Source of the DNA: Methylococcaceae bacterium
GTDB taxonomy: Bacteria; Pseudomonadota; Gammaproteobacteria; Methylococcales; Methylomonadaceae
Direction: 5' to 3'
DNA length: 34,299 nucleotides
Assembly: GCA_021736705.1 (NCBI GenBank)
Contig: JAIPFI010000011.1
Span: 1 to 34,299, forward strand
The translations under genes were made by a program, and so were the position numbers. Position 1 is the first letter of the stretch, and each line of letters opens with the position of its first letter. This document shows, piece by piece, positions 28,723 through 34,299 of this stretch. The notes beneath the pieces are model-generated. The model was given only the letters and a program-made list of their open reading frames with translations, had not been told where the DNA came from and did not search any database.

Positions 28723-28745
28723 GGCTATCAATTTAAGACGGGACA
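28723..28745 (+). repeat. Left terminal inverted repeat of the DDE element
   Basis: Begins GGCTATCAATTTAAGACG and pairs with 30404-30426 with one mismatch over 23 bases. It contains the transposase stop codon (28733-28735). Confidence 0.9.
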
Positions 28746-30363
28746 TTTAGCAATTTCAATGGGTTAGAAAAAACACGTTTACTACTATTTCTAGGCAGCG
28801 GTAACTCGCCCATTTCATTAAGTAACCATGAAAATAAGTCTGGAAACTCGGTATCAAATAAACGCATTGCGGCGGTTGTGCCATCCTCGCGTTTGACTCC
28901 GTAATTATGAATGACCGTTAATGCGTTTAATCGCCTTTCAGTCAACCCTCGTCCATTGTGATACATTTGTGATAAACAGCCATTTCGCCCTTCAACAGCG
29001 GATGAACTGCGCTGAAACTGTCTTGCCATATTTTCGGCTAATGTCAGCCATTGTTGCATCTGACTTATTGATAACTTTTCACTGAAGGGGGCTGCTTTGA
29101 GCTTATCAGACGCGACTTCCCATGCTTTTCTATAGCTTGCCTTTGAGTTGCAATTTTTAGTTTGTTCCATCTTTTGATGCCAATAAACCACGGGTAATAA
29201 TGTTGAAGTCAACCAAAGCTCGGTATCCGTATCAAGCTCTAAGCTTTGCAAGGTTTCGCGTACCCAAAGCCACCAAAAACTAATGGATACGGCGAGTGGT
29301 TGTATCTGATTTCGAAACTTTTTCATCATGCCTTTGTGGTCATTAATCTCTTGCTCTTCCGCTATCTTTTCAAAGGCTTGCGCTCGTAATTCGAGTTGAT
29401 GTTCAACTTTTTCAGCATTGTTAATGCGGCTATCATTGAGCGAAAACGGATGAACCTCATCGCCAATGCCTTGTAGGTTTTCGTGATAGTCCGCTTGCGT
29501 TTTCTTAGCTTTTTCAAGCTCTTTTTCAGCCGTTATTCGCGTTGCTTTAAGATCACTAATTTTCAGCATGGTTGCGGTTTTAGAAACTTTGGACTCTTTA
29601 GTTTTCGCAGCTTGTAGCTGTTTTTCAGCATTTGCCGCACGTCTGCCTATTTTTGCGCCTAACCAGCGACTCATATCTTGTTGAGCATGGAAAAGATCCG
29701 CACCTGAATCGCAGTCAAAACCTGTCACTGCCACTTTTATCAGAGCCTTAGCGCGATCACTAATGGCGTGATTAACTTCAATGCCTAATGACTCTAAACG
29801 TGGCGAGACCTTCTTGTACCAAGTCTCATAGCACCTATCATCACTAATATCTTCCAACAAAAGATAGCCAGAGCGTAAGTCCATTAAAACTAAAATCATA
29901 AAGTTGCCGAAAAAAGTCTCATCCAGCCCCGCCACAACTTTACGCCTTTGTTTCTTCACACTTTTTTCGCATTCTTCCTGAAATAGCGGCAATAAAACTT
30001 CCATTTTATTGATTTGAGTTCGCAAGGCGGCAGGTGATACGCCTACATGAGTATCAATTCGAATCATTTTAAAAAAAAGCGATAAGGTATCCGCACCTAC
30101 ACCTGCCTTCAATCCAAAGACATACAAAGCAGCAAACACCAGCAGTCTTAGCCACGCGCTACCTGCTTCGGTTTCCCACAATGATGACTTAGGATGTTTA
30201 TTCCGCTTCTCTTGTGCTTGAAGGTGACGGTGCGCAGTGCTTTTTGAGCGACCAATAATTGAAGCCAGTTTACGAACAGTTTGTTTGCCTGTTGTTGCGA
30301 TTTCAGTGATAATCGCGTTGCTAGCTGCGCGTATTTTCTGTGTTGTTCTGTTTTTTTTGTCAT
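28733..30363 (-). CDS. DDE transposase (DUF6399-like), apparently expressed through a -1 shift on A8
   Basis: The track shows two ORFs (28733-30181 and 30148-30363). The larger frame stays open upstream to 30398 and encodes a helix-turn-helix (TVRKLASIIGRSKSTAHRHL), but has no ATG, GTG or TTG before it. The only good start, ATG at 30363, lies in the other frame and is followed by ACAAAAAAAACA, so a -1 shift at codons 3-4 gives one protein of about 543 residues. Putative DDE residues are the D in VAGLDETFF, the D in AISDRAKALI and the E in SSAVEGRNG. The EGRNG-HNGRGL tail is what I know from DUF6399-type proteins. Family naming is from memory; the transposase role is well supported by the terminal repeats. 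Confidence 0.75.
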
Positions 30364-30696: not shown

Positions 30697-30951
30697 ATGT
30701 ATAAAATTCACTATAAAAAGTCAGCCGCCAAAGCTCTGGCTAAATTACCCGTTAAAATCGCAGATCAGTTTATAGATGCGTTTGAGCGGGTGTCGCTTAA
30801 ACAGGACGAGCAACTAGATATTAAGAAACTACAAAATAGAGATGGCTATCGCCTGCGCATAGGTTGGTATCGTGCGTTATATCGCGTGATTGATGAGGTT
30901 TTAGTGATCGAGGTGGTGGCGATTGGTTCAAGAGGAGATATTTACAAATGA
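30697..30951 (+). CDS. RelE/HigB-superfamily mRNA interferase toxin
   Basis: The 84-residue basic protein begins YKIHYKKSAAKALAKLPVKIADQF and continues with LQNRDGYRLRIGWYRALYRV, the RelE/ParE-fold pattern with the arginines that in RelE contact mRNA. The last part (VIEVVAIGSRGDIYK) matches the conserved final strand. The ATG is 7 bases after a CATAAT -10-like motif with TTGAAT 16 bases before it, so the transcript may be almost leaderless. It overlaps the antitoxin by 4 bases (ATGA). Toxin-first order resembles HigBA. Confidence 0.88.
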   Translation: MYKIHYKKSAAKALAKLPVKIADQFIDAFERVSLKQDEQLDIKKLQNRDGYRLRIGWYRALYRVIDEVLVIEVVAIGSRGDIYK

Positions 30952-31307
30952 GTGTGCAATTTATAGAAAACAAGGGCGTGCCTGAGTATGCGGTTATACC
31001 CGTAGATCAGTATCAGTCATTACTGGATAAGGCAGAAGCTTATGATGATGTGGTTGCCTTTGATAAGGTGGTGGCTTGCGCTGAAGAAACGATACCTGCA
31101 CACATGGTGAGTCGGCTGGTTAAGGGTGATAATAAAATAAAAGTCTGGCGTGAGTACCGGCAGATAACCCAGGCTCAGTTAGCAGAACGGGCAGGGGTGG
31201 CGCAGGCTTATATTGGGCAGATTGAAACAGGTCAGCGCGATGGCACAGTTAAGGTTTTGGTGGTGATTGCTGAGGCGTTAGGGATTAGCTTGGATGATTT
31301 GGTGTAG
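30948..31307 (+). CDS. HigA-like antitoxin with Phd-like N terminus and Xre HTH
   Basis: The 119 residues divide in two. The N-terminal segment MSVQFIENKGVPEYAVIPVDQYQ resembles Phd/YefM antitoxins. The C-terminal Cro/C1-type helix-turn-helix is EYRQITQAQLAERAGVAQAY, followed by IGQIETGQRDGTV and ALGISLDDLV. It should neutralise the upstream toxin and repress the shared promoter; that is family knowledge. Overlapping start and stop (ATGA) with the toxin gene supports coupled translation. Confidence 0.87.
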   Translation: MSVQFIENKGVPEYAVIPVDQYQSLLDKAEAYDDVVAFDKVVACAEETIPAHMVSRLVKGDNKIKVWREYRQITQAQLAERAGVAQAYIGQIETGQRDGTVKVLVVIAEALGISLDDLV

Positions 31308-31631
31308 GTGGAGGGCGGGTATTTAGTTCAATTCTTAGGTGCTTTCTTTTTATTTACTTTTCTTTATGTTTTTTGAAAGCAATACTTGGGCTCTTTTGAA
31401 AAATGAATGGGTAACTTATATTTTTCAGTAATTCAATAAGAGTTTATGCATTTACTATAGGAATTCAGAAAGATAAACAATTGGGCGGTCTCTGCGTTTT
31501 TTAAGATAGTTTTCGCCTAAATTATTTAATAGGTAATCAGGTAAAACTAACACATAGTAGAAAAACAAGATGGCAGACAAAAAAATACCTCCGCCAGAGA
31601 AATCAGATAAATACAGGTCAAGATAGTTAAA
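31308..31631. other. Non-coding stretch between the antitoxin and the structured RNA locus
   Basis: No supported gene. A 6-bp inverted repeat GCTTTC/GAAAGC (31341-31346 with 31375-31380) encloses a pyrimidine-rich loop on the plus strand and could terminate the toxin-antitoxin transcript. An 18-codon ATG ORF (31570-31626, MADKKIPPPEKSDKYRSR) is too short to call. One end of the IS110-like element should lie in this stretch, but I cannot place it. Confidence 0.4.
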
Positions 31632-31820
31632 ATTTTGTTGCTAAAGTAGCACTCTATATTAGAGCATCAATGGTGTGCTATTCACATAATAGAAGTCGAT
31701 AAAATCGCTTCATTTATTTTATTAGTGACTTCATGCTTAATATAAAAAGTAAGCTCAGAGTAGACTGTCTAGTTAGTTTACAAGTCATGAGTCATGGGAA
31801 CACTAAATTAGCAACAAAAT
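31632..31820 (-). ncRNA. Candidate structured guide (bridge-type) RNA of the IS110-like element
   Basis: A perfect 13-bp inverted repeat, ATTTTGTTGCTAA (31632-31644) and TTAGCAACAAAAT (31808-31820), closes a 189-base stretch that starts 12 bases after the transposase stop. Four stem-loops can be drawn inside, on the transposase strand. TAGCAC/GTGCTA is at 31647-31652 with 31675-31680. A compound stem is GAAGTC/GACTTC (31692-31697 with 31727-31732) plus ATAAAAT/ATTTTAT (31699-31705 with 31716-31722), leaving a 10-base loop. GCTTA/TAAGC pairs 31735-31739 with 31750-31754, and GACTGT pairs with ACAAGTC with one bulge (31763-31768 with 31780-31786). IS110-family elements encode a bridge RNA in a non-coding end. 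Transcription is unproven. Confidence 0.5.
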
Positions 31821-31832
31821 AAAACAAGTATA

Positions 31833-32819
31833 TTAAGCAAATCGAGCTACATCGAATTCCTTATTATTTCTCAGCATATAATAGACAGTACGCGCGATCT
31901 TATGCGCGATTATATTCTTGGATGCCTTTGAACTGTGTTGCTGCTTGACCTTTTCATTATAAGTACGACCAGACTCAGAGTACCTAATAAAACAAATTGC
32001 CGCGACTTGAAAAGTCTTTCGCAAACGACTATTGCATTTATTTTTACCTTTATCTCCGTAATTTTTTCCTGCCGAGACTCGGCTCGGCGGAACAAAACCG
32101 CAGTACGAACTAAAATTTCCGACTGATTGAAATCGATCAACGTGCTCTATTTCTAATATTAATGCAGAGGCTAACATTTCTCCTACTCCAGGAATTGTTT
32201 GCAACAAGCCCAGTTCACTCTCTCTATAATTTTTTAACTCGCATTGTAAATAAGAATTAAGACTTTTAATTTGCGTCTCGCATAATTCAAGTAATATTTT
32301 TCGCGATTCGGCAAGCATTTGAGTGGACTCTTCCGAAGATCCTACCCCAGATAAAAAATGCTGATGATCAACTGTTTTGCTTTGACGCACTAAATCAGAT
32401 CGAAATTGCTGCAAAGAACAAATCCCCCGATGCAAATCTCTAATTGATCTAAACTGCTGATTACAAATATGAGATTCGGGGAATAAGCCTGCCATTAAAA
32501 GCCTCGCTATTTTCTCAGCATCACCCGCATCAGATTTATTCTTTCTCCGACACTGATTGCCAATAGCCTCAGCATCCCCCAGCATCACATTAAATCCTTG
32601 CTCTTGTAACAAATCAACTAACCAGTACCAGTTATAAGTGGATTCGACGCCAATAATCAAATTCTCCTTATATTGAGCCAAGCATTCCAAGAACACTAAG
32701 CTATCAGTATGTTTAACCTCGACAAGCATGACCACTTGCCCGGTCAATGAGTTAATTACACAAATGGTTGAGCTAGATTTATGGAAATCAATACCGCAAT
32801 AATATTGCGGATTACTCAT
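31833..32819 (-). CDS. IS110-family DEDD transposase/recombinase
   Basis: The track ORF is extended into alpA. The true start is most likely the ATG at 32819, which has GGGAG 6 bases upstream, giving about 328 residues. The RuvC-like DEDD domain shows D in YYCGIDFHK, E in IIGVESTYNW, and DD in KSDAGDAEKIA. A helical segment follows, then the C-terminal Tnp domain with LQTIPGVGEMLASALILEI and VPPSRVSAGKNYGDKGK, whose Ser is the candidate catalytic serine known from the family. The first 8 bases overlap the alpA end. It ends 12 bases before the structured 189-base region. Confidence 0.92.
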   Translation of the reverse strand: MSNPQYYCGIDFHKSSSTICVINSLTGQVVMLVEVKHTDSLVFLECLAQYKENLIIGVESTYNWYWLVDLLQEQGFNVMLGDAEAIGNQCRRKNKSDAGDAEKIARLLMAGLFPESHICNQQFRSIRDLHRGICSLQQFRSDLVRQSKTVDHQHFLSGVGSSEESTQMLAESRKILLELCETQIKSLNSYLQCELKNYRESELGLLQTIPGVGEMLASALILEIEHVDRFQSVGNFSSYCGFVPPSRVSAGKNYGDKGKNKCNSRLRKTFQVAAICFIRYSESGRTYNEKVKQQHSSKASKNIIAHKIARTVYYMLRNNKEFDVARFA

Positions 32820-33015
32820 CGTTAGCTCCCGCTCGCTGAGTGATACCAAAATGCTTATCGACATCCTCTTTATACCAACCAACACAGCGGGCAGACAACG
32901 CAATGCTCTCAGGAAAATTACCTGCCTCAATCAACCTATATACAATTGATCGACTAATACCATAACGACTCACAATATCACTCATACGATAAACTAAAAC
33001 GTGTTCTGAACTCAT
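32812..33015 (-). CDS. AlpA-family DNA-binding protein (excisionase-like)
   Basis: The 67 residues form a compact AlpA/MerR-like winged helix: YRMSDIVSRYGISRSIVYRLIEAGNFPESI, then VGWYKEDVDKHF. AlpA proteins act as transcription regulators or recombination directionality factors of integrative elements. GGAG lies 9 bases before the ATG. The coding end overlaps the IS110-type gene by 8 bases, and that gene's ribosome binding site is inside alpA, so the two are made from one message. It is not a part of the usual single-gene IS110 layout. Confidence 0.88.
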   Translation of the reverse strand: MSSEHVLVYRMSDIVSRYGISRSIVYRLIEAGNFPESIALSARCVGWYKEDVDKHFGITQRAGANDE

Positions 33016-33261
33016 AAGAAAACTCCAATTAAAAAAAGAAAATTAGAACTTAAAAGCTTTACTCGCATAAAAAAAAACATTAATATATTTCTGCAACGAA
33101 ATAAAATTAATTTTTTATACAAAAATATAAAAACTTAAATAAGCTCCATAAAAGCGCATATGAGACCTCGAAGTCTCAGTGCACTTTTTCATTATATCAA
33201 TTTTCATTTTTTTACCAAAATCACCCATTCTCCCTGCCTGAACCCTTAAAATGTAACCCCT
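33016..33261. other. AT-rich region upstream of alpA with a palindrome
   Basis: No gene is visible. It should hold the promoter of alpA-transposase (minus strand) and the other end of the IS110-like element. GCAACGAAATAAAA at 33093-33106 repeats, with one mismatch and in the same orientation, GCAACAAAATAAAA at 31811-31824 on the other side of the two genes. The near-perfect palindrome TGAGAC-CTCGAA-GTCTCA occupies 33161-33178. Confidence 0.45.
33161..33188 (+). terminator. Palindromic hairpin followed by a T run
   Basis: TGAGAC (33161-33166) and GTCTCA (33173-33178) with a 6-base loop, then GCACTTTTT. It looks like a rho-independent terminator on the plus strand, but no plus-strand gene precedes it in the window. 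It could instead be an operator or part of an element end. Confidence 0.4.
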
Positions 33262-33804
33262 TTGTTACTATCTAATTATTGCAGCAAACACTTCAAATAC
33301 CTTGATTTCATCGACTGTGGTGAAACTCAAGAAAAAAATCAGCTTGTCAACTCACCAAAAGATCCACGTACAATCGCGGCTATTGAAAGTCTAGCAACAG
33401 GTATTTTAGACCCTGTCGTTGAGCAATTTGGTGAGCTAAAACTGACTTACGGGCTCTGCGCTAACGATTTATTACTGCAGATCAAAAAGCGCCCTTCTCC
33501 TGGGATTGCGCCGCAACTCGACCAGCATGCAGGCTATGAAGTAAATTCCAAAAACAAGCGCATTTGTCAACGCGATGGATTTGCTTGTGATTTTTATGCG
33601 CTCAATACCGACTCTTTAGCTGTCGCCAAATGGATCGTGATGCACTTGCCATTTGACCGACTGTATTTTTACGGTAAAAATAGACCGATTCATATTAGTA
33701 TTGCCCCTGAAAACAGCTTTGCCATTACGCTTTTAGAGCAATCTCCGACAGAGCGGCGCATACCGAAAAACATTAAAAAAGCGCAGTTTTTGCTGAAAGA
33801 GTAA
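33262..33804 (+). CDS. Peptidase M15/hedgehog-fold-like protein, unassigned
   Basis: The 180-residue frame begins at a TTG with an in-frame stop 12 bases upstream, so no ATG start is possible in front of it and no good ribosome site is seen; the 5' end may be damaged. The segment LLSNYCSKHFKYLDF resembles the opening of M15-like proteins. His89 (DQHAGYEV), Asp110 (GFACDF) and His144 (RPIHISI) have the order of zinc ligands in the Hedgehog/DD-peptidase fold, so a metal-binding domain is possible. It is 5 bases upstream of the methyltransferase fragment, implying a shared operon. Function unknown; the family call is tentative. Confidence 0.55.
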   Translation: MLLSNYCSKHFKYLDFIDCGETQEKNQLVNSPKDPRTIAAIESLATGILDPVVEQFGELKLTYGLCANDLLLQIKKRPSPGIAPQLDQHAGYEVNSKNKRICQRDGFACDFYALNTDSLAVAKWIVMHLPFDRLYFYGKNRPIHISIAPENSFAITLLEQSPTERRIPKNIKKAQFLLKE

Positions 33805-33809
33805 AATCA

Positions 33810-34202
33810 ATGGATGCCACACAATTCAATCAACTGATTAAGTCGGTTAAGCTCGGTAAATTAGTCGGCAATGCCCGCTATCTGCATATCAGTGCCTTTC
33901 ATGAAATACCTTCTGAATTAAAAGACTTTATTATTTTGATTGCTAATGCGTTAAAAATACCTGCAAACGATTGGAATATTATTAAGCTACATACCCAGCA
34001 ATTCCGGCTTTCTTATCTGAATTACCCCCAGTTTTACGAAGACTCTTATCCCCCTTTACATAACAGCATTACCGTTGATTTAGAACATAAAACTCAGAAA
34101 ATAGCGAATTATACGGCTACTGAAAATGCGCCTATTTTGCATCGTAAAGAGCTGTTTATCCAAGGTAAACGCATTAAAAGGACTTTAAAGACAAAGAGAT
34201 AG
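33810..34202 (+). pseudogene. N-terminal fragment of a DNA phosphorothioation-associated methyltransferase-like protein
   Basis: The 130 residues resemble, from memory, the start of the family named DNA phosphorothioation-associated putative methyltransferase. The matching parts are KLGKLVGNARYLHISAF near the N terminus, then LSYLNYPQFYEDSYPPLHNSITVDL and NAPILHRKELF. That family is usually several hundred residues long, so this is only about a quarter of it. It stops at a TAG 32 bases before the start of an ISAs1-type transposase, so truncation by that insertion is the simplest reading. No dndABCDE gene is in the window. Confidence 0.6.
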
Positions 34203-34234: not shown

Positions 34235-34299
34235 ATGAACTATAGTTTAGTTGAGCATTTTTCCCTACTGACTGACCCCAGAATTGAGCGTAAAAAACT
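34235..34299 (+). CDS. ISAs1-family transposase, first 21 codons
   Basis: Runs off the window end. The ATG at 34235 reads MNYSLVEHFSLLTDPRIERK, the characteristic opening of ISAs1-family transposases (HFS-L-DPR-ERK, the DDE_Tnp_1-associated N-terminal domain). The element's left end must lie between about 34180 and 34230, but the terminal repeat cannot be fixed without the other end. Confidence 0.75.
   Translation, partial: MNYSLVEHFSLLTDPRIERKK

What the first reader, a model, noticed from the sequence alone, without database searches (positions are those of the whole stretch)
31833..33015. AlpA-like gene translationally coupled to an IS110-family recombinase
The transposase ATG lies inside the end of an AlpA-family gene, and its GGGAG ribosome site is within the alpA coding sequence. 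AlpA proteins regulate excision of integrative elements, whereas IS110 elements are normally single-gene. A DEDD, probably RNA-guided recombinase paired with a directionality-factor-like protein would be an unusual arrangement and might control direction or timing of transposition.
Basis: partly seen in the sequence, partly recalled or inferred. Interest (0 to 1): 0.72.

Follow-up and report, generated by a model that had tools for sequence, protein, structure and literature searches.

The report
AlpA gene inside an RNA-guided IS
A tiny DNA-binding gene (alpA) overlaps the start of an RNA-guided jumping-gene enzyme, and the best reading of the element's ends puts it inside the jumping element, but only one example is known and what the gene does there is untested.

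Summary
An intact AlpA-family gene (32812-33015, minus) overlaps by 8 nt (ATGAGTAA) an intact IS110-family DEDD transposase (31833-32819), whose GGGAG site lies inside alpA. The transposase is a long-branch sister of an IS1111-type clade from Vibrio/Alteromonas plasmids. No relative above about 36% identity was found, it is single-copy in its genome, and none of the roughly 120 relatives or 70 randomly drawn IS110 genes examined has an AlpA neighbour, so the pair is not an inherited unit in any data searched. Anatomy nevertheless argues against simple juxtaposition. The 3' non-coding region carries IS1111-style guide segments at the positions seen in the sister clade. They identify the right end at about 31550 (shuffle p 0.004 and 0.008). 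The donor guide and left-tip consensus both pick 33200, upstream of alpA, as best left end; the same rule ranks the true left end first in 7 of 8 sister elements. This makes a ~1.65-kb IS carrying alpA upstream of, and overlapping, the transposase. The left end is not statistically decisive: a weaker site inside the alpA 3' end (32861) would make the pairing accidental. A role for AlpA in direction or timing is speculation. Moderately interesting singleton.

The parts
31550..33200 (-). Proposed IS1111-type element carrying alpA and the transposase (about 1.65 kb)
   Evidence: Right end from guide/target matches and the sister-clade tip; left end from tip consensus plus donor-guide pairing, rank 1 in the interval but shuffle p about 0.19; the rule is validated in 7 of 8 sisters
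33189..33200 (-). Candidate left-end tip TTGATATAATGA (sister consensus TTGATACTCATTG)
   Evidence: Only exact TTGATA in 32815-33290 (minus strand) and best pairing with the donor guide
33149..33188 (-). Hairpin directly inside the left tip (GTGCACTGAGAC-TTCGAG-GTCTCATATGCGC)
   Evidence: Folds within 33101-33200 at -24.4 kcal/mol; whole 5' non-coding region z = -3.5; sister left ends also carry an inverted repeat just inside the tip (sequences)
33191..33218 (-). Promoter-like site TTGGTA-16-TATAAT, its -10 inside the left tip
   Evidence: 10 of 12 matches, TG before the -10; matches of this kind are not above chance in the region
32812..33015 (-). alpA, AlpA-family helix-turn-helix protein, 67 aa
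   Evidence: PF05930 43.1 bits; distant PDB match to AlpA family protein 8c3t, E 0.002
32826..32830 (-). GGGAG ribosome-binding site of the transposase, inside alpA
   Evidence: Sequence
32812..32819 (-). 8-nt gene overlap ATGAGTAA
   Evidence: Sequence
31833..32819 (-). IS110/IS1111-type DEDD transposase, 328 aa
   Evidence: tree
31769..31779 (-). Putative target guide AAACTAACTAG (8 nt complementary to right flank GTTAGTTT), same place as the sister motif CTAACTGG
   Evidence: p = 0.008
31695..31708 (-). Putative donor (left-end) guide GCGATTTTATCGAC
31678..31694 (-). Putative donor (right-end) guide TTCTATTATGTGAATAG, near copy of the right tip
   Evidence: 11 of 12, p = 0.004
31632..31820 (-). 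Proposed guide-RNA (bridge/seekRNA) body, closed by an 18-nt imperfect stem
   Evidence: Inverted repeat, fold (z = -1.8); no Rfam match
31551..31562 (-). Right-end tip TTCTACTATGTG, followed by flank GTTAGTTT
   Evidence: Sister right-tip matrix, 12-mer p = 0.012, 17-mer p = 0.044

Best explanation
This is a single, divergent IS1111-type insertion sequence that has taken an alpA gene into its left end, between the left tip and the transposase. Shown: both genes are intact and overlap by 8 nt; the transposase has the catalytic residues; the 3' non-coding region carries segments matching the element's right tip and complementary to its right flank, at the positions seen in sister elements. Inferred: an RNA from that region guides the DEDD transposase to sites beginning GTTAG; the left end is at 33200; alpA and the transposase are made from one message, with transposase translation helped by alpA translation. 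Least certain: AlpA, a small DNA-binding protein that elsewhere regulates excision of integrative elements, may bind the left-end hairpin/promoter and adjust transposase expression or circle formation. It may equally be a passenger without function.
For: Catalytic columns intact. Transposase is sister (97/89 support) of an IS1111-type clade. Right end: tip matrix p = 0.012, donor guide 11 of 12 (p = 0.004), target guide 8 of 8 (p = 0.008), both together in 0 of 3000 shuffles. Left end upstream of alpA: only exact TTGATA and best guide pairing in the interval; the same rule ranks the true left end first in 7 of 8 sisters. TT precedes GATA at the left, as in all ten sisters, and TT follows the right tip. 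In well-delimited relatives the left end mostly lies 72-93 nt upstream of the transposase, a distance that falls in the coding core of alpA here. Joining the flanks on the rival assumption (left end in alpA) does not restore the usual aromatic-hydrophobic AlpA ending.
Against: The left end is not significant on its own: the combined score is matched in 19% of shuffles, and an 11-nt tip matrix prefers 32861 inside alpA (p = 0.15). No subterminal inverted repeat longer than about 6 nt (GAAAAA) joins the proposed ends. The end of alpA (VDKHFGITQ) departs from the common VDxW[LI] ending (19 of 25 AlpAs compared have W there), as if the gene were altered from that point on. No second copy and no relative with alpA. 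The transposase branch is very long (2.33 against a median of 0.37), compatible with decay. The surroundings hold IS relics.
Confidence: 0.5

Rival explanations
1. Accidental pairing: an ordinary IS1111-type element inserted into the 3' end of an alpA gene left over from an integrative element. Its left end is at about 32861, the last ~15 residues of the alpA reading frame are IS sequence, and the overlap is a coincidence.
For: Second-tier site TCGATAAGCATT at 32861 (9 of 11 to sister tips; pairs at 8 consecutive positions with the donor guide). AlpA loses its usual W[LI] ending exactly there. No other homologue has alpA. AlpA genes in general sit in integrase islands, one of them in this same genome.
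Against: The left leader would be 42 nt and lack the hairpin, against 72-93 nt in most relatives. The base pair at the left would be TC, not the TT seen in all ten sisters and at the right end. No inverted repeat with the right end. Joining the flanks gives no canonical AlpA ending.
Confidence: 0.28
2. Decayed locus: the element is a dead relic among other IS fragments and lost its true left end by deletion, which fused the transposase to an unrelated alpA.
For: Long branch, odd amino-acid make-up, single copy, ISL3-type and IS3-type terminal relics within 180 bp of the right end.
Against: Both ORFs intact with ribosome sites; catalytic residues kept; guide segments still match the element's own tip and flank.
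Confidence: 0.15
3. Domesticated recombinase: AlpA and the DEDD protein form a switch or excision system of a larger island, not an IS.
For: Fixed single copy; AlpA proteins are described as directionality factors elsewhere (literature, e.g. PMC3014918 listed).
Against: Compact element with both ends and guide segments; no larger island or repeated target seen in the flanks; conserved chromosomal flank resumes at 33275.
Confidence: 0.05

Closest known systems
IS1111-type elements of Vibrio/Pseudoalteromonas/Alteromonas plasmids (loci L031-L033, L264-L267), resembling the attC-targeting group that includes ISKpn4 and ISPst6
   Same: DEDD transposase (30-34% identity, sister in the tree), long 3' non-coding region with guide segments at matching positions, right tip ...TATGTG before GTTAG, left tip TTGATA
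   Different: Sisters have no alpA, an ~85-100 nt leader directly before the transposase, a ~480-nt right region (here ~285) and a 7-nt subterminal repeat (TGAGCCT/AGGCTCA); here alpA sits between the left tip and the transposase
IS621 / ISCro4 (IS110 group, solved structures)
   Same: Same recombinase family; C-terminal domain match E 4e-8 and 2e-7
   Different: The IS110 group carries the guide RNA upstream of the transposase; here it is downstream
AlpA-type regulators of integrase islands (PF05930)
   Same: Same helix-turn-helix family, about 44% identity to the nearest
   Different: Those lie in integrase/replication-type islands; none of the ~30 nearest AlpA loci encodes an IS110 protein

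Membership tests
IS110 family | DEDD_Tnp_IS110 and Transposase_20 domains with D/E/D/D and the C-terminal Ser | tested here: met
IS1111 group | Long non-coding region with guide RNA downstream of the transposase | tested here: met
   Guide segments in 31678-31779 match the element's own tip and flank; the RNA itself was not observed
IS1111 group | Subterminal inverted repeats of 7-17 bp (PMC11208160) | tested here: inconclusive
   Only a 6-nt GAAAAA/TTTTTC match between the proposed ends (from the sequences)
IS1111 group | Short left end, one gene only | tested here: not met
   186 nt plus alpA between the proposed left tip and the transposase
IS1111 group | Guide order: top-strand complement before bottom-strand match (PMC11187229) | tested here: inconclusive
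   Top-strand complement found at 31769-31779; no clear bottom-strand match identified
attC-targeting IS1111 group | Insertion in an integron attC site | tested here: not met
   Right flank GTTAGTTT is not a full attC core (GTTRRRY) and no integron cassette is seen; flanks are an IS3 relic and a chromosomal gene
AlpA family | PF05930 match over the gathering score | tested here: met
   43.1 bits against 21
Recombination directionality factor | Biases excision against integration | not testable with these tools
   Needs experiment

The most novel reading that the evidence does not exclude
The first RNA-guided (IS1111-type) transposon carrying its own AlpA-type DNA-binding regulator, translated in overlap with the transposase and controlling expression, circle formation or the direction of the RNA-guided recombination.
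Probability: 0.15. Interest if true: 0.75.

Novelty: new variant of a known kind. Interest (0 to 1): 0.42.

Why it matters
IS110/IS1111 elements are regarded as minimal one-gene systems and are being developed as programmable recombinases. A natural member with a protein regulator inside the element would show a way to control their activity or direction. As it stands there is one sequence only, with a probable but unproven left end.

Tried and rejected
Inverted repeat 31405-31417/33218-33230 as element ends: the left arm is part of an ISL3-type terminal repeat found elsewhere in the genus, and by a rough estimate about one such match is expected by chance. Empty site from relatives: the gene from 33275 on is conserved, but each relative has different DNA upstream, so no empty site is seen. 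Apparent repeat at 33185-33229 in another genome: AT-rich chance match. Own-genome match at 31554-31585 (contig C103): intergenic, not a second element. Viral contigs with transposase, profile or AlpA: none. Rfam: none. RNAalifold on the sister right ends gave no convincing consensus, so no covariance model was built. Literature on AlpA with IS110, or IS110 with passenger or accessory genes: no relevant title or abstract.

Full report
OBSERVATION. The window encodes, on the minus strand, alpA (32812-33015, 67 aa) and a 328-aa transposase (31833-32819). The transposase ATG lies in the last codons of alpA (overlap ATGAGTAA) and GGGAG at 32826-32830 lies within alpA. Both family assignments pass curated cut-offs. 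The catalytic columns invariant in 14 relatives are present.

RELATIVES. Own genome: one copy. 85k species of genome contigs: best 34% identity. Plasmids: best 33%. Viral contigs: none. 100 relatives, 369 class genomes and the 311 order genomes available: best 36% over a partial match, 35% over the full length. An AlpA profile made from 29 homologues plus the window's own, run over six frames, finds no AlpA within 1.2 kb of any of 102 other transposases, none near 10 more from the class, none in a further set of order and sister loci, and none in 70 IS110 loci drawn from 299 genomes of the phylum (with positive controls). Conversely, none of the 30 nearest AlpA loci encodes an IS110 protein; those read in detail look like integrase-type islands, as does the other AlpA of this genome. 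So the pair is a singleton in everything searched. The homologues are distant, so this cannot show that close relatives lack alpA.

WHICH GROUP. The tree places the transposase as sister (97/89) to an IS1111-type clade on Vibrio, Pseudoalteromonas and Alteromonas plasmids, on a long branch (2.33; the program warns that the place of long branches is unsure). Multi-copy relatives show the IS1111 layout: mostly 72-93 nt before and about 400-480 nt after the transposase, in line with the published description of the group (PMC11208160; PMC11187229).

ENDS AND GUIDE RNA. Sister elements share a left tip TTGATACTCATTGAGCCT, a right tip AGGCTCATATGTG followed by GTTAG/GTTAT, and conserved blocks between. 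Several sisters appear to sit in attC-like integron sites (my reading, not tested with an integron tool). In the window the right-tip matrix has its best match at 31557-31562 (12-mer p = 0.012, 17-mer p = 0.044). The intervening RNA contains a near copy of that tip (11 of 12, p = 0.004) and an exact 8-nt complement of the DNA just outside it (p = 0.008); both together occurred in 0 of 3000 shuffles. The target guide sits where sisters have CTAACTGG. I regard the right end at about 31550 as well supported.

For the left end I used the donor guide preceding the right-tip copy (GCGATTTTATCGAC, 31695-31708). In sisters, the homologous segment pairs best of about 490 positions with the true left tip in 7 of 8 cases. 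In the window the best partner, and the only exact TTGATA, is at 33200, upstream of alpA. The score is reached in 19% of shuffles, so this is support, not proof. A hairpin follows this tip, as an inverted repeat does in the sisters, and TT flanks the cut at both ends. The strongest rival is 32861, inside the alpA 3' end. It gains from the loss of the usual AlpA ending there but lacks the hairpin, the TT and a normal leader length, and joining its flanks gives no canonical AlpA ending.

SURROUNDINGS. Just outside the right end lie terminal relics of an IS3-type (31496-31529) and an ISL3-type element (31386-31420), both found with transposase genes in genus relatives. At the other side a conserved gene resumes at about 33275.

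MECHANISM. Most likely the element works as an RNA-guided IS1111-type transposon, with alpA and the transposase on one message. A regulatory effect of AlpA is plausible by analogy with directionality factors of integrative elements but rests on no test here. A passenger without function, or an accidental insertion, remain live.

VERDICT. Confirmed observation; interpretation partly supported; new variant of a known kind if the left end is right, ordinary juxtaposition if not.

Noticed in passing
window 31386-31420: Terminal-repeat relic of an ISL3-type element (GGGCTCTTTTGAAAAATGAATGGGTAA); copies with a transposase occur in genus relatives.
   Followed up: partly
window 31496-31529: 34-bp right-end relic of an IS3-type element (97% to copies in several genus relatives), about 20 bp outside the proposed IS1111 right end.
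   Followed up: partly
window 28733-30181: Transposase-like 482-aa ORF whose only Pfam match is DUF6399 (214 bits), overlapping a short upstream ORF (30148-30363); perhaps a frame-split transposase.
   Followed up: no
window 30697-31307: ParE-type toxin ORF overlapping a helix-turn-helix antitoxin-like ORF (toxin first).
   Followed up: no
window 33810-34202: Short ORF matching positions 312-428 of a DNA-phosphorothioation-associated methyltransferase model well below its cut-off (69.9 of 150 bits); homologues of the preceding gene (33262-33804) are separate short ORFs in the genus but lie in long ORFs (over 800 aa) in other genera.
   Followed up: partly
window 34237-34299: The contig ends within a reading frame starting MNYSLVEHFSLLTDPRIERK, which looks like the start of an ISAs1-type transposase (from memory, not tested).
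   Followed up: no
window 32794-32810: Hairpin CCGCAATATTATTGCGG begins 9 nt into the transposase gene and could affect its translation start.
   Followed up: no
L181 245-340 and 1304-1400: 97-nt direct repeat (95%) just left of the IS1111-type element, looking like two integron attC-type sites.
   Followed up: no
locus L193 (contig C74 of the same genome): Second AlpA-like gene in a typical integrase island, overlapping by 1 nt a 204-aa ORF.
   Followed up: no
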